NCBI RefSeq assembly: GCF_016652235.1
Contig: NZ_JAEPKU010000039.1
Coordinates: forward strand, 1-35,132
Length of the DNA stretch: 35,132 nucleotides
Direction of reading: 5' to 3'
Source of the DNA: Dysgonomonas sp. Marseille-P4677
GTDB lineage: Bacteria; Bacteroidota; Bacteroidia; Bacteroidales; Dysgonomonadaceae
This document shows, one piece after another, positions 1,249 through 30,156 of this stretch. The notes under the pieces were generated by a model that made no database searches, was not told the DNA's origin, and saw only the letters and a program-made list of their open reading frames with translations. How positions within the stretch are numbered: the first letter of the stretch is position 1; every line of letters begins with the position of its first letter. The position numbers were made by a program, and so were the translations under genes.

Positions 1249-3918
1249 TTAAATGAGTATTTTATGTGTGACGGTTTCTTGTTCAGTTTTTATGAGAATA
1301 ATATGGACTCCACGTTCCCATTTATCGGTAGGTAATATCATAGGGGTTAAATCGGAAGAACCCGAATATTGACGGATAATTTGTCCTGATAAATTGAATA
1401 TGTAAATATATTGTATTTTCGATTTGGGTATAATACGTAATTGTTTGATAGCTTTGTCAAATATAATTAATACAGCATCATCCCAAACCGGCAAATCGAC
1501 ACACTGTTTTTGATCCTTCGAAACTTTTCCGTTTAGAAAAGTTGCATTCACTGTATAGCAATGAGATTGTCGAGACATATCCGGTGTATAGTCTATATAT
1601 GATCCTGCTGTAAGATCAGAAGCAAGTAACTGCCCATTACGATAAATTGTATACCAAAAATCAGATTTCTCTATTACTTTTGCATCGGCTTGTATATTCC
1701 AGTTTCCTCTTATTCCAAATGATTCGGCATAATAATTTTTATTATCAAACCATAACATGTTTCTCTCTTTTATGATTGGAATATTACCATATGATACAAA
1801 TAAACCAAAGGCGTTGTTGACCTCATAGCCCACATAGAGATCTTTACTTAAATCGACATTAATCGGTGTATCAAAGGTATATTTATTGTATTCTCTTGGA
1901 GTTAAAGTGTTTATTTCCTTACTGAAAATATCTGTTCCATCCTGCTTTATCTTTAGCGTGCAAGATGTTACTTCATCACAAGGAATAAATCTTATAGATG
2001 TTAACATTACACTTCTGTACGCAGCTAAATCATCCACTGTCCATTTCGATAATATTCTGTAATGACCTATTGATTCTTGGCTAAATGTATTCGAAATATT
2101 TTCGTTATCTCGAGACATCGTTTTTTGCTTTTCCGTCAAAGGTATATCACGATCGTGGAGAATACCTCTTCTTTCCCATTTCAGGTTTATTCTATCTCTA
2201 CGAGGATCTACCGATGCAGTAAATGAATTAGGGAGAATAACTCCAATCCACTCTTTAACTTTTATATGTTGTTTTTTTACAAGTGATTTTTCTGTGGATA
2301 ATCCTTTATCTATAGTTAATTTTACATCGTATATGCCCGGTGTATCGTAAGTAACGGTAGGGTTTTTGTCTGTTGAAATATATGGATGTCCTCCTTCAAA
2401 AGTCCAGGTATAAGTATGTGCGCCATAAGAGAAATTTTTCATAATAATAGAATCTCCTTCTGTTATAGATAACATATTGGACGTAAATTCAACCCTGAGG
2501 GTATCTACTTCATATCGTCCTTCTACAACTGTTTTTCCCGTTTTAGTAGCATCTAAATATGTTTTCATTTTCTGAGTATACATATCCCAATGCTGACTGA
2601 ATTTACCATATAAGTTATTTCCGGTTCTATAATTACAAGAAGAATTACCTCCGGATAAAGTTCCTACAATCAATTTGTTTTCGTTGAATAGGGGAGAGCC
2701 TGACGAACCACCTTCAGTTACACTATGCCCATTTTTTGTAGCAGAAAATATTACCTTCCAATGGGCATTTTGTGCTCCGATTGCTTCATTGTTTCGCCAT
2801 GTGGCGGATACAGCGGGAACTGTATAGGTAGATATTTTTTTTACATCTCCTCTGGGATGGTGAATACCAACTCCATGTTTCGGAGCATTCTCTCCAATAT
2901 CCCAGCCATTATAGTATACATCGTATGAAGGCGGAACATTATCGTTCAACATTAATAAAGCACCATCCGACCCGCCATTAATATCTATAGCTGCAAGCAA
3001 TTGTGCGCCAACCATCGTTTTTGTACCTGTTGGAACATCGTTTATCCTTTCACAACCCGGAGATTCGAAATGAAAATAGAATATCATCTGACTGAATATT
3101 GCCGGATTTTTCGCGTCGTCAAAAAAACAATGGTAAGCACTCAAATAATAAGGTTTTATCGTATCGGATGTATTATTGACCAGAGAACCACTGCAGAAAT
3201 ACCAGCCGTCATTTAAGGGAGTTATAGTCTGGGCTATTCCTTTTTTCTGATGTTGCCAATCATCTCCCTCCGAGCAATTGATATTGACTTGGCACGATCC
3301 CGAAACATCTATGCCAGAACGTAATGTTGTTGATACTGATATGTAATTATAGCAATAGCCAATACCGGAAATCTGAATTCTTGGTTTCTGAGTATTCAAT
3401 GTGTCTTTTGCTTCCACATATTCGAGTACTATATTATCTCCTGCAACTGCTTCTGTTGCAAAAGATTTTCCTGACGGATTTGTTATACTTGTATAAGCTC
3501 CCAATATATGCGAATAGTCACTATTATATATAAATAATTTAGCACCTGTTGGTATTTCAAATTCATTATATTTAAGAATTAGTGCTACTGCATTCGAACA
3601 TTCGATAGGTAATCGCCATATACGCTGGCCATTTTCCAAAGTTGTCCACTCTCCCGAATTTTCCATACTAAAGTTGACATCGATATTATATGCAATCCGT
3701 AGAGGAGCTCCGGCTGCTTCACGAATTGCATCTTCTTTCTTTAACTGATCTACATTAAAGTTTATAGGGACATTATAAGAATGAGTCGATTTCTTTAAAA
3801 CAGTTTTTGAGATGAGGCTTGGAGGAAGCCCTCCTTCGCTTATTTGAGCAGTTGTTGATATTGATATTAAAAGAAAAAATATAATTGAATGAATAGTAAA
3901 TATGATATTCTTTTTCAT
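1249..3918 (-). CDS. Secreted lysyl-endopeptidase-like serine protease with PKD domain and T9SS tail
   Basis: This 889-residue protein starts with a Sec signal peptide ending STTAQ (about 1-25). The trypsin-fold domain at about 200-460 shows His263 (SAYHC), Asp318 (GGSDGALL) and Ser406 (GGSSGSPLF), the spacing and context of the lysyl endopeptidase (Achromobacter protease I) group. A PKD domain follows at about 480-553 (YTWTFEGG, TYDTPGIYDVKLTI). A fibronectin-III-like region at about 560-800 appears interrupted by a beta-rich insert (about 610-745, WTVDDLAAYRSVMLTSIRF), an arrangement I recall from Porphyromonas-type surface proteins. The last 70 residues look like a type A T9SS sorting domain (IYIFNLSGQIIRQY, ending THKILI). 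I infer secretion across the outer membrane by T9SS and protein degradation outside the cell. The exact cleavage specificity is not provable here. Confidence 0.85.
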   Translation of the reverse strand: MKKNIIFTIHSIIFFLLISISTTAQISEGGLPPSLISKTVLKKSTHSYNVPINFNVDQLKKEDAIREAAGAPLRIAYNIDVNFSMENSGEWTTLENGQRIWRLPIECSNAVALILKYNEFEIPTGAKLFIYNSDYSHILGAYTSITNPSGKSFATEAVAGDNIVLEYVEAKDTLNTQKPRIQISGIGYCYNYISVSTTLRSGIDVSGSCQVNINCSEGDDWQHQKKGIAQTITPLNDGWYFCSGSLVNNTSDTIKPYYLSAYHCFFDDAKNPAIFSQMIFYFHFESPGCERINDVPTGTKTMVGAQLLAAIDINGGSDGALLMLNDNVPPSYDVYYNGWDIGENAPKHGVGIHHPRGDVKKISTYTVPAVSATWRNNEAIGAQNAHWKVIFSATKNGHSVTEGGSSGSPLFNENKLIVGTLSGGNSSCNYRTGNNLYGKFSQHWDMYTQKMKTYLDATKTGKTVVEGRYEVDTLRVEFTSNMLSITEGDSIIMKNFSYGAHTYTWTFEGGHPYISTDKNPTVTYDTPGIYDVKLTIDKGLSTEKSLVKKQHIKVKEWIGVILPNSFTASVDPRRDRINLKWERRGILHDRDIPLTEKQKTMSRDNENISNTFSQESIGHYRILSKWTVDDLAAYRSVMLTSIRFIPCDEVTSCTLKIKQDGTDIFSKEINTLTPREYNKYTFDTPINVDLSKDLYVGYEVNNAFGLFVSYGNIPIIKERNMLWFDNKNYYAESFGIRGNWNIQADAKVIEKSDFWYTIYRNGQLLASDLTAGSYIDYTPDMSRQSHCYTVNATFLNGKVSKDQKQCVDLPVWDDAVLIIFDKAIKQLRIIPKSKIQYIYIFNLSGQIIRQYSGSSDLTPMILPTDKWERGVHIILIKTEQETVTHKILI

Positions 3919-3966: not shown

Positions 3967-4096
3967 CAACAATACGCAACAGGTGTCTATAACCATATAT
4001 GATGATATTTTGGATGAAGAATACTTATTTATGGGGATTGATATGGCAGGTATTTTTTTGGAAAATTTACACTTCTAAAGCATTATTATTCGACTT

Positions 4097-7063
4097 ATGT
4101 CTATAAAGAGATTTTTTTTCTGTCTTTTTTTTTGCATTTGTTTTATTTACTCTGCTTATGGCCAACAATATACCATAGAAGGGAAAATATTAAACAATAG
4201 AACAAATGCACCGATTGATTATGCAACTGTAGTCCTTTCCAATAATGAATTTTGGGATACAACTGATGATGATGGACATTTTCAAATAAAGAATGTTCAT
4301 TCAGGAAAGGTTACTATTGTTATACATTGCTTTGGCTACGAAAAAAAAGAATATGAGGTAAATGTAGATCGTGATATTTCGGATTTGGTGATACACTTGA
4401 ACGAAAAGGCTCTTACTCTGAATGAAGTAGTTGTTACAGCGCAAGGAGGGAAGCAAATAGCAAATTCGTATGTTATAGATCGTGTCGCACTCGATCATAT
4501 GCAAATGATAAGTGTTGCCGATATCAATAGTCTGTTGCCCGGAGGAAAGACCAATAGTACTTTACATTTAGTTTCCGGGGCTGAACGCCTTTCTGTCAAC
4601 GGAGGGGCTAAAGAAGAGGGCAATGCCACCTTTGGTACTGCAGTAGAAGTAGATGGAGTACGTATATCAAACAATTCGGGACGGGATTTTAATACATCCG
4701 GAGGAGTAGTAATAGGTGGTCCCGACATTCGCAATATCGCTTCAACAAATATAGAATCGGTGGAAATCGTTACAGGTGTTCCATCTGTAGAATATGGCGA
4801 TCTGACAAATGGAATGGTAAAAATCAATTCGAAAAAAGGCAAAACACCTTTCGTCATTGATATGGCTACCAAACCAAATACAAAACAGATTGCCGTAAGC
4901 AAAGGTCTGGATTTAAATAATAACAGAGGAATATTAAATTTAAGCTACGAACACACAAAATCAATTTCCAATTTAGCCTCACCTTATACTTCATACGATC
5001 GTAACGGATTGTTCCTTAATTATTCGAATGTATTTAACCGTTCCAATGATCAGCCTATTACGTTTAATGTGGGGTTGTCCGGGAATGTTGGAGGATATGA
5101 TTCTAAATCAGATCCCGATCTGTTTGTTAATACATATACCAAACAAAAAGACAATGTACTGCGGGCTAATGTTTCAGCTAAATGGCTGTTGAAGAAAAAA
5201 TGGATTACAAATTTGGAGATGTCGGGTGCAATAAACTATACCGACAAATTGCTCGAAAACAGTGAGAATAAATCTCGCTCTTCATCTACTGTGTCTATAC
5301 GTACTCCAGAGGAAGGGTATCACATTGGACAAGCTTATGAGGAAAATCCCAATGCAGATATAATCCTTATTCCACCAGGATATTGGTACGAATTGTCTTA
5401 TCTGGATTCTAAACCGTTAAGTATTTCGGCAAAGATAAAGGCCGACTGGGTACGCAAATTCGGGATTGTAAATAGCAAAGTAATGATAGGCGGAGAATAT
5501 AGTACAAGCAGTAATAAAGGGCGTGGAAGATATTATGCAGATCCTTTGTATACTCCTACTTGGCGCGAATATAGGTATGACAAGGAACCGGCCTTGAACA
5601 ACTATGCGATATATGCCGAAGATTTGGTAACGATACCGGTAAATCAGTCGAGACTTGAATTCATAGGAGGAGTACGTTCCGATATCACTTCTATAGATGG
5701 TTCGGAATATGGAACTGTAAATAGTCTTTCGCCGCGATTTAACGCAAGGTATGTATTTTGGGAAGGACGAAAAGATCATACTATAAGGGATTTTAATATC
5801 AGATTAGGCTGGGGTAAAGCTGTAAAATTACCTCCATCAGCTGCATTATATGCTCTTCCTAGCTATAACGATATTCTTACTTTTGCTCCGGGAACAACCT
5901 CCGAAGGAAAGACTTATTATGCTTACTATACAATACCCAGTAAAAGAATATATAATAACGACCTTAGATGGCAATACAATATCCAGCAGAGTATAGGTGT
6001 CGATATCAACATAAAAGGTACAAAGGTTTCTCTGAATGCTTCGCGTGATAAGACGTATAATCCATATATGAGTACATCTGTATATGAACCTTTTACATAT
6101 AATTTTACCGATCAGAAAGCTCTAGAATCGTCTCTGATCCCAATAGAGAACAGAATTTATAATGTAAATAAAAATACGGGGATAGTAACCGTTACAGACA
6201 ATACGGGGATACAAACTCCGGAAACTTTAAGCTATTCTCAAAGACTAAAATTGAAGGGTAATACGATGTATATCAATGGGTCACCAGTAGAAAGGAGATC
6301 GTTTGACTGGATCGTAGAGTTTGGTAAAATACAAGCTATTAAAACCTCGATCAGATGGGATGGAAGTTATTATTATTACAAGAATACCGAAGAATCTATC
6401 GTGCAAGGTACCTCATCTCGCAATGTAGAAAGTGAGGACGTCAAATATATCGGCTATTATGTAGGAAGTAATAGTAGCGTGGTTAATGGTGAAATATCGA
6501 AATCTCTGAATACAAATTTGACTCTGACAACGCATATACCGACTTTAAGGTTGATTGTTTCGTTACGTCTTGAAGCCTCTTTGTATAATTACAGCCAGAG
6601 TCTTAGCGAATATAAAGGCAAAGCCTTAACATTTAATATCGCAGACAAGAATGATAATTTCCCTTCTGGTTCTCAGCAGAATATTTATGAGGGAAACAGT
6701 GCTACTGCAATATATCCTTTATATTATTCGACTTACGATGATCTGAATACAAAAATACCTTTTGCCGAGAAGTATGCGTGGGCAAAAGAAAATGATAAGA
6801 ACTTATATAATGAGCTTAGTAAACTGGTAAATAAAAACAGTTTTATACGAACATTCAAAGCCGATAAATTATCGGCTTATTATTCGGCAAACATAAGCGT
6901 AACTAAAGAAATAGGGCGTTTTGCCTCTATATCGTTCAATGCAATCAATTTTTTGAATAGTCTTCAAAAAGTACATTCGGAAAAGTGGGATGCATACTAT
7001 TCCTTATACGGTTCGTATATCCCTTCTTTTTATTATGGAATGTCTTTAAGAATAAAATTGTAA
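4097..7063 (+). CDS. TonB-dependent outer-membrane receptor
   Basis: The 988-residue protein has a signal peptide (1-22, ending AYGQ), a CarboxypepD_reg-like domain at about 24-103 (YTIEGKILNNRTNAPIDYATVVL), a TonB-box-like stretch LNEVVVTAQ, a plug domain at about 118-247 (SVEIVTGVPSVEYGDLTNGMVKI) and a long beta-barrel ending in GMSLRIKL. Such receptors import scarce ligands (siderophores, heme, cobalamin, glycans) across the outer membrane using energy from TonB-ExbBD. No SusD gene follows, so it is probably not a glycan SusC. It is the first of eight genes on this strand; the next begins 19 bp downstream. The signal-peptide codons contain T8 (4112-4119) and T9 (4125-4133) tracts, possible slippage sites. 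The ligand is unknown; iron-related cargo is suggested only by the PepSY gene at the end of the operon. Confidence 0.9.
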   Translation: MSIKRFFFCLFFCICFIYSAYGQQYTIEGKILNNRTNAPIDYATVVLSNNEFWDTTDDDGHFQIKNVHSGKVTIVIHCFGYEKKEYEVNVDRDISDLVIHLNEKALTLNEVVVTAQGGKQIANSYVIDRVALDHMQMISVADINSLLPGGKTNSTLHLVSGAERLSVNGGAKEEGNATFGTAVEVDGVRISNNSGRDFNTSGGVVIGGPDIRNIASTNIESVEIVTGVPSVEYGDLTNGMVKINSKKGKTPFVIDMATKPNTKQIAVSKGLDLNNNRGILNLSYEHTKSISNLASPYTSYDRNGLFLNYSNVFNRSNDQPITFNVGLSGNVGGYDSKSDPDLFVNTYTKQKDNVLRANVSAKWLLKKKWITNLEMSGAINYTDKLLENSENKSRSSSTVSIRTPEEGYHIGQAYEENPNADIILIPPGYWYELSYLDSKPLSISAKIKADWVRKFGIVNSKVMIGGEYSTSSNKGRGRYYADPLYTPTWREYRYDKEPALNNYAIYAEDLVTIPVNQSRLEFIGGVRSDITSIDGSEYGTVNSLSPRFNARYVFWEGRKDHTIRDFNIRLGWGKAVKLPPSAALYALPSYNDILTFAPGTTSEGKTYYAYYTIPSKRIYNNDLRWQYNIQQSIGVDINIKGTKVSLNASRDKTYNPYMSTSVYEPFTYNFTDQKALESSLIPIENRIYNVNKNTGIVTVTDNTGIQTPETLSYSQRLKLKGNTMYINGSPVERRSFDWIVEFGKIQAIKTSIRWDGSYYYYKNTEESIVQGTSSRNVESEDVKYIGYYVGSNSSVVNGEISKSLNTNLTLTTHIPTLRLIVSLRLEASLYNYSQSLSEYKGKALTFNIADKNDNFPSGSQQNIYEGNSATAIYPLYYSTYDDLNTKIPFAEKYAWAKENDKNLYNELSKLVNKNSFIRTFKADKLSAYYSANISVTKEIGRFASISFNAINFLNSLQKVHSEKWDAYYSLYGSYIPSFYYGMSLRIKL

Positions 7064-7082
7064 ACAACTATTATTAATTAAC

Positions 7083-8426
7083 ATGATGAAAAAATTTATT
7101 TACTTATTAATTTGTACACTCTTTGTTTTCACTTCATGTAGTGACGACAATAATGATGATGGTAACTATAAAACATTTTCTGTAACGGTTCAACTTACGT
7201 ATCCGGCCGAAAGTAATTATAAGGCTGTTGAAGGTGTATCGGTAAAGTTGGACAGTAAAAGCGGTTCAGGTTCATACGAAGCAAAAACAGATGGAAGCGG
7301 TAAAGCTGTATTAGCTGTGCCTGCCGGTATATATGATATTTCTGCAACTGAACGCAGGTTTATCAGCAATCAACGTATAAACTTTAACGGAATAAAAACC
7401 GGCTTGGTTGTAAATGACTCTTGGACTGCCGCTAATATTCAGGAGCTGGAACTGCAATTCTCAAAATCTGCTCAAATAGTAATAAAAGAGTTATACGTTG
7501 GAGGTTGCCCGAAAGATGATGGTTCGGGAACATTTAACTACGATAAATATGTTGTTTTATATAATAATTCGGAGGAGGATGCTAATGTTGGAAAGATGGC
7601 GTTGGCTATGACCATGCCATACAATTCGACTGGTACAAATAACTATTATGACGCAGGAGGTCAGCTAACATACGCAAATCAGGGATGGATACCTGCAGGA
7701 CAAGGACTTTGGTATTTTCAGCAAGATGTGGTTGTTTCTCCCGGAAAACAAATAGTTGTTGCATTAAGCAATGCTGTAAACAATACAATAACATACAGTA
7801 AATCTATTAATTTCGATAACCCGGAATATTATTGTACATATGACAATACTGTTTATACACATGCACTTACTTATCCAGCTCCGGCTGCTTCTATTCCTAC
7901 AAGCCATTATCTGAAAGCTGTTTCCTATGGTGCAGGAACTGCATGGGCCTTAAGTGCACTATGTCCTGCTTTTTATTTATTCACGCCTGATGGAACTACA
8001 GTAAAGGATTTTGCTAACGATGCGTCGAAAAATGATTCGTATGGAGGTTCGTCCGTTTTACAGAGCAAAAAGGTTCCTTTGGAATGGATCACAGATGGTA
8101 TCGAAGTATTTACTACCTCCTTAGATGATAACCGAAAGAGACTGACTTCGACAGTAGATGCCGGATATGTATATTATACTAATAAACAAGGTTATTCTGT
8201 ATACCGAAATGTAGATAAAGAAGCGACAGAGGCTATCGAGGGTAATAAGGCAAAGCTTATTTATGGTTATAATCTTGGAACTACAAATGTAACTAAAGGT
8301 AGTACCGACCCGAGTGGAATAGATGCGGAAGCATCAATAAAAAATGGTGCACGTATCATATATAAAGATACAAACAATTCGTCGGAAGATTTTCACCAAC
8401 GTAGTCAGGCTTCTTTAAGAAAATAA
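7083..8426 (+). CDS. DUF4876 surface lipoprotein
   Basis: A lipoprotein signal peptide with lipobox FTSC places the lipidated residue at Cys19. The next residues, SDDNNDD, form an acidic patch like the lipoprotein export signal that sends Bacteroidota lipoproteins to the cell surface, so surface exposure is likely. Residues about 30-100 look like a small beta-sandwich of the carboxypeptidase-regulatory type (VEGVSVKLDSKSGSGSYEAKTDGSGKA, shown here only as its boundary: VEGVSVKL to KTDGSGKAVL). After that comes a lamin-tail-like region from about 130 (IVIKELYVGG, YDKYVVLYNNS). Length (447) and the tail ending QASLRK fit my memory of DUF4876. It sits 19 bp after the TonB receptor and 8 bp before the barrel gene, so it probably captures ligand for the receptor. 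Biochemical function is not established. Confidence 0.8.
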   Translation: MMKKFIYLLICTLFVFTSCSDDNNDDGNYKTFSVTVQLTYPAESNYKAVEGVSVKLDSKSGSGSYEAKTDGSGKAVLAVPAGIYDISATERRFISNQRINFNGIKTGLVVNDSWTAANIQELELQFSKSAQIVIKELYVGGCPKDDGSGTFNYDKYVVLYNNSEEDANVGKMALAMTMPYNSTGTNNYYDAGGQLTYANQGWIPAGQGLWYFQQDVVVSPGKQIVVALSNAVNNTITYSKSINFDNPEYYCTYDNTVYTHALTYPAPAASIPTSHYLKAVSYGAGTAWALSALCPAFYLFTPDGTTVKDFANDASKNDSYGGSSVLQSKKVPLEWITDGIEVFTTSLDDNRKRLTSTVDAGYVYYTNKQGYSVYRNVDKEATEAIEGNKAKLIYGYNLGTTNVTKGSTDPSGIDAEASIKNGARIIYKDTNNSSEDFHQRSQASLRK

Positions 8427-8434
8427 GATTATTA

Positions 8435-10081
8435 ATGAACGACAGATATAAGATACTTCGCTCAAGTGCGTTGATTGCATTATTTACTATACTGTTTGGC
8501 GGGATTTTTTGTCCTGCCAAACTTACTGCACAACAAACTGATAGTTTATGGCGAGACATTAACTATATACGTCTTTCTGATATACGTCTTTCGGGGTACA
8601 ATATGACGGGGTTAAGGTATTTACCTGTAAATAATGCGTCGGAAGCAAAAATATATACTCGGAAAGATATTGGCGATTTCATTAATTATTATGAGTCTGA
8701 CAATAGCTTCAAACTAGGCGCAGAAGTCGAATCTTACTATCGTTTGAATAAGAAATCAGTTTTTTACGGAAAAGTCGGATATAGTTACTTTAAGGGACGT
8801 AATATGGGAGGTTCGTTTTTTATCAATCCCAATTATAACCCTATAGATATTCAGGAGTCTGCTGATAGTACACGGGGGATAAAGAAAAAGGAGTTGTATC
8901 ATCTGATTGGAGGAGTAAGTGTTGACTTACATCCCAAAATTAGTATCGGGGGGAAAATAGACTATGAAGTAGGAAATTACTCTAAACAAAAAGACCTGAG
9001 GCATGTAAACAGATTTCTGGACCTAAAAGCGACAATCGGAGTCAGTTATCGATTGAAGAAGGGTGTAGAATTGGGTGCAAATTATTATTTCAACCGTAAT
9101 GTGGAAAACCTAGAGTTTTTGAGGGAAGGAAATACAGATAAAACATATGAATCCTTAATTAGTATAGGAAACTACATTGGGAAGAAAGAACAATTTGGAG
9201 AGGACGGTTATTATACGGCTAAAAATAAGAGAACGCCAATGGTAAATAAGTTTCATGGGGCTTCCTTACAACTATATTTATCTCCTGTCAAACAGTTTTC
9301 TATTTTTAATGAAGTTACCTATAAATCACGAAAAGGGTATTATGGAGTTCCTGCTACAGCAAGTATCGTTCTTACTGAGCATAGTTCTGATATTTTGGAA
9401 TATCATGTGGCTTTTGCCCTTCAAAAAGAACGTTCCTTACATACTCTTAACATAAATGTAAGTCATGAAGATTTAAAGAATAATGAAAATATATTCAGAA
9501 AAGAAACCACTCCCGGAGAGACGTCTGTAATCTCATATTATGGTAGGTCAGAGATTCTTAAGAAAGAAGAATTGTGTATCTCCGCTGAGTATCTAGGCCA
9601 TTTGGAAATAGATAATTATCATCCTGCATGGGTAATCAAGGCTGGGTTTGACTTTTATAGGCGGCAGCAAACAGCCTCATTGTATCCATTTTACAGGAGA
9701 CAAACCGTAAATAGTTATTCTGTAAATATATCAGGAAAACATCATATTAAGATAGGAGAAAATAATATGTATAGTGTAGGTCTCTTGGCTTCATATAGGG
9801 CGGGAGATGGAACACCTTTTTATGATGCATTATATGCAGAGCCATCCGATTCGCAGAAAGACGTTTATAAAACAAATGACAGATATCTTTATCGGGAGTT
9901 CGAATACCTTACATTGCAACAGATAACCGGTGGGGTAAATTTCAGATATTCAACAACTTTTATAAAAGGGGTTAAAAGCTATGTTCAGGCCGATTATGGA
10001 TTGGCTAAAGCTTTTGATGTTAGATATATCGAAGGGAATTTTCATAATACAATAAGCCTTACATTAGGCTGTACATTTTAA
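8435..10081 (+). CDS. DUF6850-family outer-membrane beta-barrel protein
   Basis: The 548-residue product has a signal peptide (cleavage likely after LTAQ, about residue 33) and then alternating beta-strand patterns rich in Tyr, Gly and Phe (GKVGYSYFKG, LGANYYFNRN, VNFRYSTTF), ending LTLGCTF with a C-terminal Phe, as expected for an outer-membrane barrel recognised by BAM. I assign it to DUF6850 from its neighbours and overall pattern. It starts 8 bp after the DUF4876 gene, implying co-translation and a shared complex or pathway. It lacks a plug domain, so it is not a second TonB receptor. Its role could be a passive pore or a partner of the receptor. Confidence 0.7.
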   Translation: MNDRYKILRSSALIALFTILFGGIFCPAKLTAQQTDSLWRDINYIRLSDIRLSGYNMTGLRYLPVNNASEAKIYTRKDIGDFINYYESDNSFKLGAEVESYYRLNKKSVFYGKVGYSYFKGRNMGGSFFINPNYNPIDIQESADSTRGIKKKELYHLIGGVSVDLHPKISIGGKIDYEVGNYSKQKDLRHVNRFLDLKATIGVSYRLKKGVELGANYYFNRNVENLEFLREGNTDKTYESLISIGNYIGKKEQFGEDGYYTAKNKRTPMVNKFHGASLQLYLSPVKQFSIFNEVTYKSRKGYYGVPATASIVLTEHSSDILEYHVAFALQKERSLHTLNINVSHEDLKNNENIFRKETTPGETSVISYYGRSEILKKEELCISAEYLGHLEIDNYHPAWVIKAGFDFYRRQQTASLYPFYRRQTVNSYSVNISGKHHIKIGENNMYSVGLLASYRAGDGTPFYDALYAEPSDSQKDVYKTNDRYLYREFEYLTLQQITGGVNFRYSTTFIKGVKSYVQADYGLAKAFDVRYIEGNFHNTISLTLGCTF

Positions 10082-10164
10082 ATACCTGAATAAGAAAATT
10101 TTCTTTGTTTTTTGATACAACTAAAAATTACTTATAGCTAAAAATTAATTTGATAAATCAACGA
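10082..10164. other. Operon gap with palindrome
   Basis: This is the longest gap inside the eight-gene operon. It contains the perfect 14-bp palindrome AAGAAAATTTTCTT at 10092-10105. I see no strong terminator or promoter, so the ABC genes are probably co-transcribed with the outer-membrane genes. Confidence 0.4.
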
Positions 10165-11040
10165 ATGGATACCGTTATACGATGTGATAATATTACCCAT
10201 TATTATGGGAATAAGCTAATATATGAAAACCTGAACTTCGAAGTTAAGCAAGGGAAAATACTTGGCTTGCTGGGCAAAAATGGAACAGGAAAAACGACCA
10301 TTATAAATATACTTAATGGTTATTTACAACCTAGATCGGGTAATTGTTGCATTTTTGGTGAAAATATGAACCAAATATCTCCTGCTACAAAAGCACGGAT
10401 AGGCTTGTTGCTCGAAGGACATGTACAACATGCCTATTTTAATGTCCGTCAGATAGAACGTTTCTACAGTAGTTTTTATCCCAACTGGAAACGTGAGGCC
10501 TACTATGAGCTTCTTAAGAAACTTCAAGTAACCGAAACACAGGCAATAAGTACAATGTCTTGTGGACAACGTTCTCAGGTAGCATTGGGGCTGATATTTG
10601 CTCAAGATCCCGATCTATTGATTCTGGATGATTTCTCCATGGGGCTTGATCCTGGTTATCGCCGGTTATTTATTGAATATTTGAAAGAATATGCTACATC
10701 GGGAAATAAAACAATCTTTCTCACATCCCACATCATTCAGGATATGGAGATGCTTATAGACGATTGTATGATACTCGATTATGGATGTTTGTTATTACAC
10801 GAACCAACACGATATATATTGGATAATTTCAGGCGATTCCGTTTCAAGTCTGAAGCCACAGCAATAGGATCAATAGACGGTTTGTGGAATAGCGAAAAGA
10901 TAGGCTCGACGTGGGAGACCTACTCATTTTTGTCCGATGATGAGGTTAAGAATAAATTATCATCATATAACATTAGTGATCTAAAAGAAGAAAAACTATC
11001 ATTGGAAGACGCTTTTATTGGGTTGACCGGAAAATATTAA
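10150..11040 (+). CDS. ABC transporter ATP-binding protein
   Basis: This is a cytoplasmic ABC ATPase of about 296 residues. It shows Walker A GKNGTGKTT (42-50), a signature loop MSCGQ (about 136-140), Walker B LLILDD (156-161) and an H-loop His194 (LTSHI). Overall it resembles the YtrB/NatA type that pairs with ABC-2 permeases. Two features are off-consensus: Cys replaces the first Gly of SGGQ, and Asp161 stands where the catalytic Glu normally follows Walker B. These may slow ATP hydrolysis. The longest frame opens with TTG at 10150; an ATG at 10165 (MDTVIRCDN) leaves the whole ABC fold intact and is the likelier start. The permease gene follows 13 bp later. Substrate unknown. Confidence 0.85.
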   Translation: MINQRMDTVIRCDNITHYYGNKLIYENLNFEVKQGKILGLLGKNGTGKTTIINILNGYLQPRSGNCCIFGENMNQISPATKARIGLLLEGHVQHAYFNVRQIERFYSSFYPNWKREAYYELLKKLQVTETQAISTMSCGQRSQVALGLIFAQDPDLLILDDFSMGLDPGYRRLFIEYLKEYATSGNKTIFLTSHIIQDMEMLIDDCMILDYGCLLLHEPTRYILDNFRRFRFKSEATAIGSIDGLWNSEKIGSTWETYSFLSDDEVKNKLSSYNISDLKEEKLSLEDAFIGLTGKY

Positions 11041-11053
11041 AACAAGATTAATT

Positions 11054-11725
11054 ATGTTTCAAGCATTATTTTATAAAGAATGGATCAAAAGCCGACGACT
11101 GATTTTCCTTATCGGAATTGTTCTTATTGGGGCTATCATTTATAGTTTTATTAATATCGCGCAAACATTCCGGGTCGAAGGTTCTATACAGGCATGGAGT
11201 GATGTTATATTAAAAGATATTGCTGTTTTACCTGCTTTTTTTCAATGGTTGCCTATTCTGATTGCATTAACTATTTCTTTTACTCAGTTTATACCTGAAA
11301 TGACGAATAAAAGATTAAAGCTTACACTGCATCTGCCCGTACCCGAAAGTAAGACTATTGCCACTATGCTTTGTTATGGGCTTTGTGTCTTGCTGATAAT
11401 TTATTTGGCTACCTATCTTGTCCTTATGATCGGGTTGTCATTTTATTTCCCTTTCGAAATTAGGGTAATTGCTACTTGGAGATTATTACCTTGGTTTGCA
11501 GCCGGGATAACGGGATATTTACTTGCAGCATGGATTTGTATCGAGCCTGTTTGGCGACAACGTATATGCAATACTTTTATTTCCATATGTATCCTTTCGT
11601 TATTTTTTATTAAAGCTCAGTCTGGTGCTTATTTACCACTATTGCCTTTTTTACTTATTATAATGATCGTGTGCTTTGGAAATCCATTTTATTCTTCGGC
11701 ACGCTTTAAAGAAGGAAAACAATAA
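11054..11725 (+). CDS. ABC-2-like permease subunit
   Basis: This 223-residue protein is almost entirely hydrophobic, with about six predicted membrane helices (roughly 15-35, 60-80, 102-127, 138-160, 170-187 and 190-207). It starts MFQALFYKEWIKSRR, a cytoplasmic amphipathic opening typical of ABC-2 permeases. It lies between the ATPase gene (13 bp upstream) and the DUF4857 gene, so the three probably form one inner-membrane complex. No substrate residues can be named from sequence alone. Confidence 0.75.
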   Translation: MFQALFYKEWIKSRRLIFLIGIVLIGAIIYSFINIAQTFRVEGSIQAWSDVILKDIAVLPAFFQWLPILIALTISFTQFIPEMTNKRLKLTLHLPVPESKTIATMLCYGLCVLLIIYLATYLVLMIGLSFYFPFEIRVIATWRLLPWFAAGITGYLLAAWICIEPVWRQRICNTFISICILSLFFIKAQSGAYLPLLPFLLIIMIVCFGNPFYSSARFKEGKQ

Positions 11726-11757
11726 TAATATCATTAAAATATTTGAATGGAATAACA

Positions 11758-12990
11758 ATGAGATACAAGAAGTTAATATATTGCCTGATCCTTATACTTA
11801 CTACCTTGATGATGCTGTGGTTGTTGCCACTGTTAGTCAATAAGCTTACGTATAAGCCGGATCATTATCCTTTTGTTTACTATAGCACTATGCTTGAAGA
11901 ATTGGCAATCATAGACTATGGGAACAAAGAGTATCCTATGACAAACAAAAATGGAGATAGTTTCACAACTGCCGAAATGGATTCACTGCTTCCAATGCTT
12001 AATTACCGCCAGTTGATGAATGACGGACGAATGCCGGACAGCATAAAAGGGCAGGAGATGAATCCCCGAATGTTGCGGATGACTTCATTTACATTTAGAT
12101 ATAATCCATCCGAAACAAAAACGCCTGGCAACGGGCTGTATATACTGTTCGAATCAATGCCTAAACGGGTCGGATTGACCATGCCTGAAGATGTATTCAG
12201 AATGAAGAATAACATTGAGTTTATAAATACGGAAAGTAATACTGTAAATGAAACAAAGAGCAGGGAATTTCAGTCTGAATTGGAAAAGCAGGGATATTCT
12301 TTCCCTTCTCAATGGTTTGCAGGAAATCCAAACCCCAGGAAATCTTATGATGAAGGTTATTTCAGTTTAGACAACAAGGGACAATTGTTTCATATAAAAA
12401 TGGTAAACGGACGCTCTTATATCAAAAATACCCATATTGGAGAGAAAATAGATATCGGATATTTTTCAATGCTCGAAGTGGCAGACAAGCGTTTTTATGG
12501 CTTTCTGTTTAGCAATCAGGGAGACATATATATTATCCAAAATGAATCTGGTAATTATCAGGCAATGAAATTGGATATAGACCCGATTGACCTGAAAAAA
12601 GATCAAGTTTTTATTATGGGAAATCTTTTTGAATGGACAGTGTCTGTAGTCAAACCGGAAGAGAAACTGTGCTATGGCTTGGATAATAATTCGTTGAAGC
12701 AAATCGATAATTATAGCATGAAACGTGAACCGGATAAATGGGATAAGGTTGTGAAATGGATATTTCCTGCATATTTGACTATCGAAAGCAAATATTCAAA
12801 CTTTCTGGTTCCTCAAATACATTATGTGGGAGTATATGCCTTTATTCTAAATATATTATTATCAGTTTGCTATGTGCTTATTCTTTCCGAATCTCGGAAG
12901 GTTAAGATATATAAGTCTTTATACATTCTGGTAACAGGTATCGCCGGATTCTTAGCATTATTAATTCTACCTAAATCAAAAAAATCATAA
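11758..12990 (+). CDS. DUF4857 inner-membrane protein
   Basis: I recognise this as a DUF4857-type protein, which in Bacteroidota accompanies an ABC ATPase and permease. It has one N-terminal membrane helix (about 5-28), a large soluble, probably periplasmic domain of about 320 residues, and two C-terminal helices (about 356-377 and 385-404) followed by a lysine-rich end. The frame also allows a TTG start at 11743, adding five residues, but the ATG at 11758 (MRYKKLIYCL) directly precedes the first helix with positive charges and is preferred. Its layout resembles a permease-like subunit with a large extracytoplasmic sensor or docking domain. It could connect the ABC complex to the outer-membrane parts of the operon. 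Function not established. Confidence 0.7.
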   Translation: MRYKKLIYCLILILTTLMMLWLLPLLVNKLTYKPDHYPFVYYSTMLEELAIIDYGNKEYPMTNKNGDSFTTAEMDSLLPMLNYRQLMNDGRMPDSIKGQEMNPRMLRMTSFTFRYNPSETKTPGNGLYILFESMPKRVGLTMPEDVFRMKNNIEFINTESNTVNETKSREFQSELEKQGYSFPSQWFAGNPNPRKSYDEGYFSLDNKGQLFHIKMVNGRSYIKNTHIGEKIDIGYFSMLEVADKRFYGFLFSNQGDIYIIQNESGNYQAMKLDIDPIDLKKDQVFIMGNLFEWTVSVVKPEEKLCYGLDNNSLKQIDNYSMKREPDKWDKVVKWIFPAYLTIESKYSNFLVPQIHYVGVYAFILNILLSVCYVLILSESRKVKIYKSLYILVTGIAGFLALLILPKSKKS

Positions 12991-13002
12991 ATTAATTGAA
13001 AT

Positions 13003-13539
13003 ATGAAAAAGTTATTATTCATTGCGTTTATTTCATGCTTCGTTGCAGCATGTGGAAACAAGAAAGCAGAACAGGCTGATCAAAAGGCCAATGTTGAAAA
13101 ATCTGAAGCATCAGACTTGGTTTATAAGTTAGACGATCTCTTGACTATTGCCGATCAGCTGGTTGATAAAACGGTAAAAGTAAGAGGTAATGTGACCCAT
13201 ACCTGTAAACACTCCGGAAAAAGATGCTTTATTGTCGGAGAAAAAGGGGATGTATCTATGAGAGTGGAGGCTAAAGGTAATATCGGAGGCTTTAATCGCG
13301 AACTGACAGGTTCCGATATAGAGATCACAGGTATTTTGAAGGAACGCCGGTTGACAAAAGAATACATAGACCAAATGGAAAAAGAAACAAATGAAAAAGC
13401 GGTAAAAGAAGATGGTTCTGCGGAATCTTGTCAGGCCGAGCTAAATAATATAGCCAGTATGAGAAAGTGGATGAAGAACCACGACAAAGACTATTATTCA
13501 ATTTATTATATGGATGGACAAGATTACACAGCCCTCTAA
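13003..13539 (+). CDS. Periplasmic OB-fold-like lipoprotein with Cys/His motif
   Basis: A lipobox VAAC gives a lipidated Cys17; the following GNKKAEQ has no acidic export signal, so the protein probably faces the periplasm. Residues about 55-115 (KTVKVRGNVTH, SDIEITGILKERRL) look like the small OB-type beta-barrel of the tRNA_anti-like group found in many periplasmic proteins. A compact motif, Cys68-x-His70-x4-Cys75, lies in the first strand-loop and could bind a metal, heme or cluster or be redox active; a further Cys is at 143. The C-terminal 60 residues are charged and helical. It lies 12 bp after DUF4857, and its 3' end overlaps the PepSY gene by 26 bp, strongly suggesting coupled expression with that protein. 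Molecular function unknown. Confidence 0.75.
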   Translation: MKKLLFIAFISCFVAACGNKKAEQADQKANVEKSEASDLVYKLDDLLTIADQLVDKTVKVRGNVTHTCKHSGKRCFIVGEKGDVSMRVEAKGNIGGFNRELTGSDIEITGILKERRLTKEYIDQMEKETNEKAVKEDGSAESCQAELNNIASMRKWMKNHDKDYYSIYYMDGQDYTAL

Positions 13540-14086
13540 ATCGAGAATAAGAAACAAAATAACTAAATGGGCACGAATCATCCACCGGGACTTAGGATTC
13601 TTAATGGTTGGTGTCTGTTTAGTTTATGCTATATCCGGAATTTTACTGAATCACATGAATGGTAAAGATCCGGCTTTTCATACAGAAGAAGTGACTATCC
13701 AACTCTCGTCGGGTTTAAATAAAGAAGACCTGATGGTAGCATGGAACGATAAGAAAGGTCTTCCTGTTTTGAGAAAAGTCTTGCCATTAGATGATGAGCA
13801 TTTACGGCTTATGCTTGAAGGTGGGGTAGGAGTATACAATATGGATACGGGAACTATTGACTATGAGAAATATACAAAAAGAGAATTTGTATATTGGATA
13901 AATAAACTTCATTACAATAAAGTGAAAGGATGGAGTATTATGGGCGATTTTTTTGCTGCTTCTCTTATATTCTTTGCCTTGTCGGGTTTGGTGATGGTCA
14001 GGGGGAAAAACGGGATTATGGAGCGTGGAAAATGGTATCTCATTGTCGGACTATTGATCCCGGTTGTATATGTCATAGTAGCATAA
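13514..14086 (+). CDS. PepSY-associated TM-helix protein
   Basis: The 190-residue protein begins with a basic stretch then KWARIIHRDLGFLMVG, the hallmark first helix of PepSY_TM proteins, with His24 and His47 at its two ends. A short periplasmic PepSY-like region follows (about 50-125), then KLHYNKVKGW (His133) and two further helices (about 143-163 and 173-190). In Bacteroidota, proteins of this group are linked to iron uptake; XusC of the xenosiderophore system in Bacteroides thetaiotaomicron is a PepSY protein, and related proteins are thought to be ferric reductases. I infer a reductase or iron-release role from family and context only. The start overlaps the preceding gene by 26 bp. It is the last gene of the operon; a terminator lies about 60 bp downstream. 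Confidence 0.8.
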   Translation: MDKITQPSKSRIRNKITKWARIIHRDLGFLMVGVCLVYAISGILLNHMNGKDPAFHTEEVTIQLSSGLNKEDLMVAWNDKKGLPVLRKVLPLDDEHLRLMLEGGVGVYNMDTGTIDYEKYTKREFVYWINKLHYNKVKGWSIMGDFFAASLIFFALSGLVMVRGKNGIMERGKWYLIVGLLIPVVYVIVA

Positions 14087-14147: not shown

Positions 14148-14182
14148 GGGGAATCAAAAAAATGTGATTCCCCAATTTTCTA
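14148..14182 (+). terminator. Intrinsic terminator after the envelope operon
   Basis: GGGGAATCA (14148-14156) pairs perfectly with TGATTCCCC (14165-14173) around an A-rich 8-nt loop and is followed by AATTTTCTATTTT. It lies between convergent genes and may also act on the minus-strand fumarase transcript, though the tail on that side is weaker. Confidence 0.8.
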
Positions 14183-22238: not shown

Positions 22239-24455
22239 CTATTTCTTCCATTTCAGCATTAAGCTATTTGTAACTACGCTAACACTACTCAAAGCCATTG
22301 CTGCTCCTGCTATCATCGGGTTCAATAAGAATCCATTGATAGGATAAAGCAAGCCTGCTGCAATAGGAATACCTATAAGGTTGTATATAAAAGCCCAGAA
22401 AAGATTTTGGCGTATGGTGGTAACTGTCTGTTTCGATAGCTTAATTGCTTCCGGTATCTTGGTTAGATCAGACGAAATAATAGTCATTTTTGCCACATCA
22501 ATGGCTATATCGCTTCCTTTTCCCATTGCGATACTTAGATCAGCCTGGGCTAGAGCAGCACTATCATTGATGCCATCTCCTACCATCGCAACAACCTTTC
22601 CTTCTGTTTGAAGTTGCTTTACAAAAGCAGCTTTTTCCTGTGGCAATACTTCAGCTTTATAATGATTAACTCCAGTACTTGATGCTATTTCTTTTGCTGT
22701 AGTATCAATATCACCCGTAAGCATGTAAACTTCGATACCTGAAGATTGGAGTTGCTGTATAGCCTTCTTCGATGTTTCTTTTATCTTATCGGTAATGGCA
22801 ATTATAGCCAGAGCATTTTTTGTATTAGCAAACCAAATTATAGTTTTAGAGTCTTTGCTCAGCAGATCAGCTCTTTGTCGCAATGTTTCGTCAATCGCTA
22901 TGCTGTTTTCCGAAAGTAATCTCTCATTACCGGCATAGTATATATGCTCATTTATAATCCCTTTCACACCTTTTCCGGTCATACTCTCAAAATTGATAAT
23001 CGGTGCAGAGTTAATATCTGATTTTTCAAAGTGTTTTACAACCGCTTCTCCTAAAGGATGTTCCGATTGTTTTTCCAGACTGAGGAGAATAAAGCTTTTA
23101 CTTTCATCGTTATCCAGCCAAAAGGTATCTGTAACTTCGGGTTTACCTTCGGTTATAGTTCCGGTTTTGTCTAATATGACAGCATTGACTCTTTTTGCCG
23201 ATTCAAGGGCTTCCGCATCTTTTATCAGTATTCCCTTTTCTGCACCTTTACCTATGCCTACCATTATAGCTGTTGGGGTTGCCAGTCCTAGAGCACAGGG
23301 GCAAGCAATGATGAGAACGGTTACCAGTGCCAGTAACCCATGTGTAAATCCATTGGTTGGGTCGAGTATCAGCCATAGTATAAATGAAAGTATTGCAATA
23401 CTTATTACTACAGGAACGAAAATTCCAGCAATCTTATCTACCAGCTTTTGCACAGGTGCTTTACTACCCTGTGCTTCTTGTACCATCTTTATTATTTGAG
23501 AAAGGACAGTTTCTGCTCCTATCTTTTCTGCTTTGAACCGAAAGCTCCCTTTCTGATTTATTGTTCCTGCAAATACTTTATTACCTGTTTCCTTTAGTAC
23601 AGGTATTGGCTCTCCACTAAGCATACTTTCGTCCACATACGACGAGCCTTCTGTTATAGAACCATCAACAGCTATCTTCTCACCGGGTTTTACCAATATA
23701 ATATCATTGATCTCAACTTTGCTGATGGGAGTTTCTATGTGTAATCCGTTTCCGGCAATTATTGTTACGGTTTTCGGCTGTAAACCTATCAGTTTTTTTA
23801 TTGCAGATGATGTATTCCCTTTAGCCTTCTCTTCCAGCAGACGTCCTAATAAAATGAATGCTATAATTACACTGGCAGCTTCAAAATATACATGTGGTTC
23901 AACTCCTCTATCGATCCAGAATGATGGATATACTGTATTGAAAACACTGAAAATATAGGCTATACTGGTACTCAGAGATACTAGGGTATCCATTGTTGCC
24001 GAACGATGCTTTGCCTGTATCCATGCATTTTTGAAGAAGTCTCTGCCCAACCAGAAAACAACAGGAGTAGATAGTATCCACATTATTTCGTTAGCGAAAG
24101 GTATATTCATAAAGAACATACCGATAATGACCACAGGTATGGATAATACAATTGCCCAAAACGTACGCTTTTTCAGTGAAGTTTCTTTCTCGGCGTGGAT
24201 TTCTTCAAGTATTTCGGACGTATTTTCGGCTTCTTCTATAAGCATATCATATCCGCCGTTTTGTACTGCACTTTGTAGTTTATTGGGCGATGTGACAGTC
24301 GGGTCGTATTCGATTGTGGCGTTTAATGTTGCAAAATTAACTGCCGCTTTTAAAACTCCTTCCTGTTTGCTGAGTATATTCTCTGTTCTGGCCGCACACG
24401 ATGCACAGCTTAATTTCAGCACAGGGAATGTCTTTGTTATTGTGCTGCTTTTCAT
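22239..24455 (-). CDS. copA: Cu+-exporting P1B-type ATPase
   Basis: The 738-residue pump has one N-terminal heavy-metal-associated domain (about 8-75) with Cys17-Ala-Ser-Cys20, then the P1B core: TGE-type actuator motif LSGEP (about 280), the transport-site Cys385-Pro-Cys387 in the sixth helix, phosphorylation site Asp429 in DKTGT, the SEHPLG motif (His466-Pro467) typical of P1B nucleotide binding, and GDGIND (about 626-631). The last helices carry Tyr691-Asn692 and Met720-xx-Ser723-Ser724, the residues that define the Cu+ (P1B-1) group. It therefore exports Cu+ from the cytoplasm using ATP. It begins 12 bp after the CopZ-like gene, so the two are co-transcribed. The single HMA domain resembles that neighbour (both end GGYDM), suggesting duplication. 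Confidence 0.95.
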   Translation of the reverse strand: MKSSTITKTFPVLKLSCASCAARTENILSKQEGVLKAAVNFATLNATIEYDPTVTSPNKLQSAVQNGGYDMLIEEAENTSEILEEIHAEKETSLKKRTFWAIVLSIPVVIIGMFFMNIPFANEIMWILSTPVVFWLGRDFFKNAWIQAKHRSATMDTLVSLSTSIAYIFSVFNTVYPSFWIDRGVEPHVYFEAASVIIAFILLGRLLEEKAKGNTSSAIKKLIGLQPKTVTIIAGNGLHIETPISKVEINDIILVKPGEKIAVDGSITEGSSYVDESMLSGEPIPVLKETGNKVFAGTINQKGSFRFKAEKIGAETVLSQIIKMVQEAQGSKAPVQKLVDKIAGIFVPVVISIAILSFILWLILDPTNGFTHGLLALVTVLIIACPCALGLATPTAIMVGIGKGAEKGILIKDAEALESAKRVNAVILDKTGTITEGKPEVTDTFWLDNDESKSFILLSLEKQSEHPLGEAVVKHFEKSDINSAPIINFESMTGKGVKGIINEHIYYAGNERLLSENSIAIDETLRQRADLLSKDSKTIIWFANTKNALAIIAITDKIKETSKKAIQQLQSSGIEVYMLTGDIDTTAKEIASSTGVNHYKAEVLPQEKAAFVKQLQTEGKVVAMVGDGINDSAALAQADLSIAMGKGSDIAIDVAKMTIISSDLTKIPEAIKLSKQTVTTIRQNLFWAFIYNLIGIPIAAGLLYPINGFLLNPMIAGAAMALSSVSVVTNSLMLKWKK

Positions 24456-26424: not shown

Positions 26425-26436
26425 AGCCCTTTCCTT

Positions 26437-27690: not shown

Positions 27691-27703
27691 TATAAAGATA
27701 AAG

Positions 27704-28960: not shown

Positions 28961-29022
28961 TTATTATTGAGTAATAAGATGATTAACAAATATAATAGAG
29001 GAAATAATAAACCATATATAAT

Positions 29023-30147: not shown

Positions 30148-30156
30148 ATAGAATTT

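What the first reader, a model, noticed from the sequence alone, without database searches (positions are those of the whole stretch)
4097..14086. Eight-gene surface-to-cytoplasm operon with three domains of unknown function
A TonB receptor, a DUF4876 surface lipoprotein, a DUF6850 barrel, an ABC ATPase, permease and DUF4857 protein, an OB-like Cys/His lipoprotein and a PepSY protein lie on one strand with gaps of 8-83 bp and one 26-bp overlap. Together they span every envelope layer. Known systems with TonB receptor plus PepSY in Bacteroidota (XusABC) handle siderophores; the ABC/DUF4857 and OB-like parts are extra. I infer an uptake or metal-release machine whose mechanism is not described to my knowledge.
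Basis: partly seen in the sequence, partly recalled or inferred. Interest (0 to 1): 0.72.

Follow-up and report, generated by a model that had tools for sequence, protein, structure and literature searches.

The report
Iron-regulated envelope-spanning uptake operon
Eight neighbouring genes of a Dysgonomonas-like bacterium form one conserved operon that most likely captures an iron-carrying molecule outside the cell, pulls it through the outer membrane and frees the iron with an ATP-powered, electron-fed machine whose workings are still unknown.

Summary
Relatives keep the set together: all eight in one same-strand run in 10 of 44 DUF4857 regions, in five orders; in two of the ten the OB-type gene is a DUF4920 cousin.

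Iron is well supported. A published B. theta operon with the same parts list rises 36.7-128-fold under iron depletion (PMC10434189). I found a 20-bp inverted repeat, AATACC-N8-GGTATT, upstream of the operon. The window copy (4020-4039) was not used to build the model; 0 of 5000 shuffles reach its score. The motif also precedes feoAB in three genomes and a xusAB-like operon in this genome, but not this genome's own feoB.

Best reading: surface capture, TonB import, then iron release in the periplasm by ABC/DUF4857, OB-fold lipoprotein and PepSY protein. The release step is inferred. In other Bacteroidota the operon adds M16/M28 peptidases and a NapH-type polyferredoxin, hinting at a peptide or protein carrier. 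New variant of TonB-dependent iron uptake.

The parts
4020..4039 (+). candidate iron-responsive operator, AATACTTATTTATGGGGATT (consensus AATACC-N8-GGTATT), starting 77 bp before the first start codon
   Evidence: PWM score 18.4, best in the window (next 13.7), window copy not in the training set; 0 of 5000 dinucleotide shuffles of the intergenic region reach it; similar position in relatives
4097..7063 (+). TonB-dependent receptor, 988 aa, with CarboxypepD_reg-like N-terminal domain
   Evidence: Pfam PF13715 2e-20, PF07715 4.8e-5
7083..8426 (+). DUF4876 lipoprotein, 447 aa, probable surface cargo-capture protein
   Evidence: PF16215 2.4e-18; solved relative 4q1z, 'Putative lipoprotein', E 1.1e-8; surface location and capture inferred
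8435..10081 (+). DUF6850 protein, 548 aa, probable outer-membrane beta-barrel
   Evidence: PF21012 4.8e-47, residues 58-548; barrel nature inferred from sequence
10150..11040 (+). ABC ATPase, 296 aa (TTG 10150 or ATG 10165), exporter/GldA-like by best family matches
   Evidence: PF00005 1.8e-22; best NCBIfam matches PmtA, DrrA, GldA, NodI, all far below cut-off
11054..11725 (+). ABC-2-like permease, 223 aa, at least five hydrophobic segments
   Evidence: relatives L106 and L107 have it fused to DUF4857
11743..12990 (+). DUF4857 protein, 415 aa (TTG 11743 or ATG 11758): N-terminal TM helix, beta-propeller-like domain, two C-terminal hydrophobic segments; probable ABC subunit
13003..13539 (+). 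OB-fold lipoprotein, 178 aa, with H66-x-C68-x-H70 and C143
13514..14086 (+). short PepSY_TM-like protein, 190 aa, three hydrophobic segments, invariant H24, H47, H133
   Evidence: PF16357 8.7e-14; three His in 27 of 27 homologues, hydropathy
14148..14173 (+). terminator-like hairpin after the last gene
   Evidence: 9-pair stem, 5 G-C pairs, T-rich tail; consensus match only, 8 such sites against 5.6 expected in the 10.5-kb stretch

Best explanation
This is a TonB-dependent iron-uptake system under an iron-responsive repressor. SHOWN by sequence: one conserved gene set with two sub-modules (TBDR-DUF4876-DUF6850 and ATPase-permease-DUF4857) plus an OB lipoprotein/PepSY pair, and an operator-like motif shared with feoAB and xus-like operons. 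INFERRED: the DUF4876 lipoprotein captures an iron-carrying ligand on the surface; the TonB receptor pulls it through the outer membrane; DUF6850 assists at the outer membrane. In the periplasm the ABC pair drives the DUF4857 propeller, its extracytoplasmic subunit, to engage the ligand. The short PepSY protein, probably with heme on its conserved histidines, passes electrons to Fe(III). The OB lipoprotein holds the released metal through its HxCxH site. Fe(II) then enters through FeoAB. Some relatives in the order carry a NapH-type polyferredoxin beside the operon and no OB/PepSY pair there, as expected if the pair's role includes electron delivery.
For: Conserved co-location in shuffled orders. 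Iron-depletion induction of the B. theta operon that matches by annotation, 36.7-128-fold, and of P. gingivalis PG1019-22, 20.8-214.5-fold (PMC10434189); a P. gingivalis DUF4876 gene with LFC -5.42 between hemin conditions, which I read as lower in excess hemin (PMC10470040). Operator: window site 0 of 5000 shuffles; score >=17 at 13 of 35 DUF4857 loci, four of them outside the training set (W, L028, L032, L039); before feoAB in three genomes, imelysin operons in two, and a DUF4374/TBDR pair in this genome. The GGTATT half lies exactly 27 nt before TAnnTTTG in 6 of 11 operon promoters, so it overlies the promoter as a repressor site would. DUF4857 fused to the permease in two relatives. OB-type and PepSY genes adjacent in 23 of 23 regions that hold both. 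PepSY_TM proteins include heme-bearing ferrisiderophore reductases (PMC13038864 passages). No PepSY gene in any of the 4 regions, of 33 in the order set, that have the polyferredoxin.
Against: No assay of any component; cargo unknown. The PepSY protein has three invariant histidines, not the four that bind two hemes in FoxB. Its swap with the polyferredoxin is not strict: L099 and L100 have both, and two of the four polyferredoxin genomes of the order carry a PepSY_TM_like_2 gene elsewhere. This genome's own feoB contig has no site above score 6, and most fetched motif sites lie by genes with no evident iron role. The consensus with two mismatches is not enriched in the window. The window has no TAnnTTTG at the expected spacing. 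The ABC pair looks exporter-like, so its role in uptake would be indirect; 5 of 44 DUF4857 regions lack a called ATPase, some of them cut short. The system is patchy: 20 of 149 genomes in the order, 15 of 395 in the phylum, absent from one same-genus and one same-family genome.
Confidence: 0.6

Rival explanations
1. Protease-associated import: the cargo is an iron-carrying peptide or small protein, as in the ferredoxin uptake system Fus. The receptor imports it, periplasmic M16 and M28 peptidases digest it, and the inner-membrane module recovers the iron. The compact operon of the window would rely on unlinked peptidases.
For: In other Bacteroidota the same operon carries an M16 gene (L097-L101, L104; also L130, L131, L141) with HxxEH intact in the 6 of 6 examined, and in several an M28 gene, on the same strand and mostly with short gaps; the gap before M16 in L097 is 328 bp. 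Solved relatives of the M16 protein of L099 include PqqL over nearly its full length, E 8.7e-18. Fus-like clusters are proposed as iron-protein importers in Proteobacteria (PMC6793856 passages). A secreted trypsin-like protease gene is divergent from the window operon across a 178-bp gap.
Against: No M16 gene passes the threshold in the 33 regions of the order set; one weaker, 428-aa M16-like ORF lies some 9 kb from DUF4857 in L095. The M16 protein of L099 is closer to other zinc peptidases (4nnz, E 1.1e-67) than to PqqL. No ORF of that size lies upstream of the operon in the near relative L023.
Confidence: 0.25
2. The ABC pair with DUF4857 is an exporter that returns the emptied carrier (siderophore or peptide) or secretes a chelator, and reduction by the PepSY protein alone releases the iron.
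For: The ATPase's best family matches are exporters (PmtA, DrrA, NodI), all below cut-off, and the permease is weakly ABC-2-like. No periplasmic binding-protein family is matched in the operon.
Against: None of the window genes scanned is a chelator biosynthesis gene (four ORFs at 26437-31485 not scanned). The propeller-like domain fused to the permease in relatives suggests work on a periplasmic partner.
Confidence: 0.2
3. Copper or another metal: a TonB copper-chelate importer with a PepSY copper reductase, like CrtA-CrpH, with an ABC machine acting like NosDFY in copper delivery.
For: CrtA and CrpH pair a copper TBDT with a PepSY_TM protein (PMC13038864, PMC12914433 passages). One of two polyferredoxins scanned (L046) matches the MerTP mercury-transport model after its Fer4 domains, E 1.2e-4, below cut-off, and a Cys in that stretch is kept in 10 of 11. 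HxCxH suits soft metals (recalled).
Against: The motif is shared with feoAB, xusAB-like and imelysin operons, and the operons that match by annotation are iron- or hemin-regulated.
Confidence: 0.08
4. Heme uptake: the ligand is heme and the periplasmic module extracts iron or hands heme on.
For: A P. gingivalis DUF4876 gene changes with hemin. A CbiX chelatase-like gene lies beside the PepSY gene in L107.
Against: Hemin also supplies iron. In PMC10434189 the Hmu hemin-uptake locus of B. theta is a separate one, BT0491-BT0498.
Confidence: 0.1
5. [quoted passage not shown]
For: One gene, BT3630, is annotated fimbrillin family there.
Against: No protein of the window operon matches a fimbrillin family. 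TBDR and PepSY have no part in known fimbrial assembly (recalled).
Confidence: 0.03

Closest known systems
XusABC (BT2065-BT2063), xenosiderophore use in B. theta
   Same: TonB receptor, lipoprotein, PepSY inner-membrane protein; iron-regulated; the operator motif precedes a DUF4374/TBDR pair in this genome
   Different: DUF4876 in place of DUF4374; adds DUF6850, an ABC pair, DUF4857 and an OB lipoprotein; the PepSY protein here is short, 190 aa
NosDFY/NosL/NosR copper-delivery module (recalled)
   Same: ABC-2-like ATPase and permease, extracytoplasmic partner, Cys-bearing lipoprotein, and in relatives a polyferredoxin that matches NapH and NosR models below cut-off
   Different: DUF4857 model looks propeller-like, whereas NosD is a beta-helix (recalled); iron regulation; TonB receptor in the same operon; no ABC permease found with the permease profile in the PDB sequence search
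Fus / PqqL-YddB protease-associated import (PMC6793856)
   Same: TonB receptor linked to a probably periplasmic M16 peptidase in the extended operons
   Different: No linked M16 in the window; the passages seen speak of Proteobacteria; M16 not specifically PqqL/FusC-like
FoxB and CrpH, PepSY_TM metal reductases
   Same: PepSY_TM-related family with conserved histidines
   Different: One short PepSY unit with three invariant His instead of two units with four
P. gingivalis PG1019-PG1022
   Same: DUF4876 and TonB receptor, 20.8-214.5-fold up in low iron
   Different: No ABC/DUF4857/PepSY part named in the annotation quoted there

Membership tests
TonB-dependent transporter | Plug domain | tested here: met
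   PF07715 24.3 bits, just above its cut-off of 23.9; the barrel part has no Pfam match of its own
Iron-responsive regulon of Bacteroidales | Shared operator motif with known iron genes | tested here: met
   Motif before feoAB (3 genomes), imelysin operons (2), xusAB-like pair (own genome) and this operon; own feoB lacks it
Iron-responsive regulon of Bacteroidales | Fur-family protein binds the operator | not testable with these tools
   Fur-family genes exist in 5 of 5 genomes searched; binding needs an experiment
XusABC | DUF4374 (XusB) lipoprotein in the operon | tested here: not met
   No DUF4374 among the eight proteins
FoxB-type PepSY reductase | PepSY_TM-related family match | tested here: met
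   PF16357 8.7e-14, above cut-off; PF03929 just below its cut-off
FoxB-type PepSY reductase | Four conserved His, two on each membrane face | tested here: not met
   Only H24, H47, H133 conserved, 27 of 27
NosDFY | Right-handed beta-helix NosD subunit | tested here: inconclusive
   DUF4857 model (pLDDT 77.3) is propeller-like with TM helices and its listed matches are propellers; a match not listed is not excluded
NosDFY | Permease homologous to NosY | tested here: inconclusive
   Profile search of PDB sequences found no ABC permease at E <= 0.1
Fus-type protease-associated import | M16 peptidase gene linked to the receptor | tested here: not met
   None in the window operon; present in relatives outside the order
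Fus-type protease-associated import | Receptor homologous to FusA/YddB | not tested
   -
BT3625-BT3633 type operon | Same gene families in one operon | tested here: inconclusive
   Matches by published annotation only; B. theta sequences were not compared; L043 and L095 have the order TBDR-DUF4876-DUF6850-OBL-PSY-ATPase-permease-DUF4857, which fits the listed order

The most novel reading that the evidence does not exclude
A phylum-wide iron-piracy machine of Bacteroidota that imports whole iron-carrying peptides or small proteins. An ABC-driven, propeller-bearing periplasmic unit pulls the iron out mechanically, with electrons from interchangeable donors (a short PepSY protein or a NapH-type polyferredoxin). 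The extended form digests the carrier with M16/M28 peptidases. It would combine what Fus and Nos do separately and, to my knowledge (recalled), would be the first ABC machine that strips rather than carries a metal in iron uptake.
Probability: 0.2. Interest if true: 0.85.

Novelty: new variant of a known kind. Interest (0 to 1): 0.6.

Why it matters
Gut and oral Bacteroidota compete for iron with pathogens, and as far as I recall only Xus and Hmu are understood in some detail. The operon that matches by annotation is among the strongly iron-induced loci of B. theta, yet I found no functional study in the held library. The motif proposed here, if it is the operator, would let the iron regulon be read from sequence in Bacteroidales and is easy to test. 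The ABC/DUF4857/OB/PepSY unit poses a clear question: how iron leaves its carrier in the periplasm.

Tried and rejected
Strict either/or use of PepSY and polyferredoxin: rejected, since L099 and L100 hold both and two of four polyferredoxin genomes of the order (G050, G089; not G096, G132) have a PF16357 gene elsewhere.

FeoB next to OB/PepSY as a general rule: rejected. Of six OB-PepSY pairs seen outside the operon (L109, L110, L111, L133, L134, L142) only L109 has feoB genes among the neighbours scanned (not every neighbour was scanned).

OB-like hits in distant genomes: those of L099, L103 and L112 are DUF4920 proteins; L097, L100 and L113 show the same CxxxGCW-type motif instead of HxCxH. 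They are cousins, and the OBL count includes four of them (L097, L099, L100, L103).

The motif by simple pattern is weak: own genome 29 matches against 20 for the reversed control; five relatives 8/5/5/8/9 against 3/2/2/6/3, forward strand; window with two mismatches 3 against 2.5 expected. I fetched 16 of the sites with flanks: 5 precede feoAB or imelysin operons, L212 precedes a TBDR and L220 a TBDR-like ORF, 9 have no evident iron role, and one of these, L210, scores under 14. In the own genome I fetched 15 of the 29 sites, in 14 regions (L180 a repeat, L177 the feoB contig): one is xusAB-like; L169 and L173 precede TBDR-like ORFs that were not scanned; the other 11 regions have no evident iron gene among ORFs judged by eye.


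Full report
WHAT IS THERE. Eight + strand ORFs fill 4097-14086. They are a TonB receptor, a DUF4876 lipoprotein, DUF6850, an ABC ATPase, a small weakly ABC-2-like permease, DUF4857, a small lipoprotein without a Pfam family above cut-off, and a short PepSY_TM_like_2 protein. Gaps are 19, 8, 68, 13, 17 and 12 bp, and the last pair overlaps by 26 bp. A 178-bp gap separates the set from a divergent trypsin-like gene with a T9SS tail, and a terminator-like hairpin follows at 14148-14173. The genome, G000, is a 4.73-Mb draft. The closest named relative of DUF4857 found is in Dysgonomonas sp. BGC7, 58% identical; from this I take the order to be Bacteroidales.

CONSERVATION. DUF4857 occurs in 20 of 149 genomes sampled in the order and 15 of 395 in the phylum, the own genome counted in each and one other genome in both. 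I read 52 regions (L023-L053, L095-L114 and the window), chosen for a DUF4857 or OB-type match, some cut by contig ends; 44 contain a called DUF4857. Of these 44, 28 have the TBDR, 27 DUF4876, 27 DUF6850, 39 the ATPase, 34 the permease, 24 an OB-type lipoprotein and 23 the PepSY gene. All eight lie in one same-strand run (gaps up to 250 bp) in 10 of 44, window included, in five orders. In two of these ten, L099 and L103, the OB-type protein is DUF4920. In L025 the inner and outer modules sit side by side on opposite strands. Order changes with retained linkage argue for a working unit. OB-type and PepSY genes are neighbours in 23 of 23 regions that hold both, three of them with the DUF4920 kind.

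IRON. PMC10434189 (passages seen) reports that B. theta BT3625-BT3633 (DUF4857, hypothetical, ABC ATPase, two PepSY-TM, fimbrillin, two DUF4876, TonB receptor) rises 36.7- to 128-fold with 150 uM dipyridyl, and P. gingivalis PG1019-22 20.8- to 214.5-fold. The authors call the B. [quoted passage not shown] That it equals the window operon rests on family names; B. theta sequences were not compared. PMC10470040 (one passage) gives LFC -5.42 for a P. gingivalis DUF4876 gene between hemin conditions; I read it as lower expression in excess hemin.

OPERATOR. Upstream sequences of relatives share an inverted repeat, AATACC-N8-GGTATT. A position matrix from 13 such sites, the window not among them, scores window 4020-4039 at 18.4; the next best site in 35 kb scores 13.7. 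None of 5000 dinucleotide shuffles of the 178-bp intergenic region reaches 18.4, and none of 30 shuffled windows holds such a site. The looser test, consensus with two mismatches over the whole window, is not significant: 3 matches, 2.5 expected. Scores of 17 or more occur in 16 of 57 upstream stretches, at 13 of 35 loci; in 9 of the 13 a site lies 68-105 bp before the called start. W, L028, L032 and L039 were not used for training, and L028's site lies only 11 bp before its called start. Of the loci outside the order, only six had a stretch that the test took (L097, L098, L099, L100, L103, L105); none reaches 17, the best 15.6, and several of these stretches are internal to the operon. Elsewhere the motif precedes fused feoAB in three genomes (scores 28.0, 21.0, 19.3) and imelysin operons in two (23.0, 20.1; families). 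In the own genome it precedes a TBDR/DUF4374 pair, the Xus families (22.9). The own feoB contig (3.4 kb) has no site above 6. The GGTATT half lies exactly 27 nt before TAnnTTTG in 6 of 11 operon promoters and 1 of 6 others. TAnnTTTG is the recalled Bacteroidetes -7 element, so the repeat would cover the -33 region, as a repressor site does. The window lacks a clear TAnnTTTG. Fur-family genes are present in 5 of 5 genomes searched, but binding is untested. PgFur does not bind the E. coli Fur box (PMC6613475 passages), so a different operator in this phylum is plausible.

EXTENDED FORMS. In Bacteroidota outside the order the operon can also hold BNR-repeat proteins, those scanned with a T9SS tail, an M28 peptidase, an M16 peptidase with HxxEH intact in 6 of 6, a NapH-like polyferredoxin of about 650 aa, and in some a FecR gene (Pfam-checked in L104) and a sigma-factor-like ORF before the TBDR. 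BNR and polyferredoxin genes also occur in four regions each of the order set. In L131 TBDR-DUF4876-DUF6850 stands with M28-M16-polyferredoxin and no ABC pair in the stretch held, which begins inside the TBDR and ends at the contig end. In the order set 4 of 33 regions have the polyferredoxin and 18 the PepSY gene, none both; in the other set L099 and L100 have both. I read PepSY protein and polyferredoxin as alternative, sometimes joint, electron donors. PMC13038864 (passages) reports a partial functional overlap of a PepSY_TM protein, CrpH, and the putative copper reductase CcoG; that CcoG is also a polyferredoxin is recalled.

MECHANISM. Best reading, confidence 0.6 for the whole and higher for iron: capture by DUF4876, TonB-driven import, ABC/DUF4857 engagement of the ligand, reduction through the PepSY protein, holding of Fe(II) by the OB lipoprotein, entry by FeoAB. 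All steps after the gene families themselves are inference. PMC13142918 (passages) states that in the Xus model XusC reduces the iron and an unknown inner-membrane protein then likely carries Fe(II). The cargo is open: siderophore, or, as the peptidases in relatives suggest, a peptide or protein.

NOVELTY. Searches for DUF4876, DUF4857/DUF6850 and the locus tags listed expression data; I saw no functional study, though I did not open every paper listed. I therefore rate it a new variant of TonB-dependent iron uptake.

Noticed in passing
window 1249-3918 (-): 889-aa protein with trypsin-like and PKD domains and a T9SS sorting tail, divergent from the operon; the operator at 4020 lies between the two genes, so it may control both. 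No ORF of that size lies upstream of the operon in L023.
   Followed up: partly
L206:9800-13524 (-), own genome: DUF4374 lipoprotein plus TonB receptor (best NCBIfam match MxcH siderophore receptor, below cut-off), a xusAB-like pair with a strong operator site 84 bp upstream.
   Followed up: yes
L208, L209, L218, L213, L222: AATACC-N8-GGTATT before feoAB and imelysin operons: a candidate general iron operator of Bacteroidales.
   Followed up: partly
L109:9133-15005 (-): Free-standing OB-PepSY pair next to two feoB-like genes.
   Followed up: partly
L027:16865-18568 (+): NosD/beta-helix-like gene follows DUF6850 in a locus where DUF4857 stands without a called ABC pair.
   Followed up: no
L106-L108: ATPase next to DUF4857, fused to the permease in L106 and L107, near TonB receptors without DUF4876/DUF6850; CbiX-like gene next to the PepSY gene in L107.
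   Followed up: partly
window 22239-24455 (-): Copper-type P-ATPase with HMA domain (CopA-like), next to a 77-aa ORF at 24468 that weakly hits the polyferredoxin profile (E 5e-6).
   Followed up: no
window 25729-31485 (+): MacB/LolD-type ABC ATPase followed by two permease-like ORFs and adaptor- and TolC-like ORFs, by resemblance; only the ATPase was scanned.
   Followed up: no
L036, L038, L039: 581-691-aa protein of unknown function divergent from the TonB receptor; an operator site lies in the shared intergenic region (scores 25.1 in L036, 17.3 in L039, 10.0 in L038).
   Followed up: no
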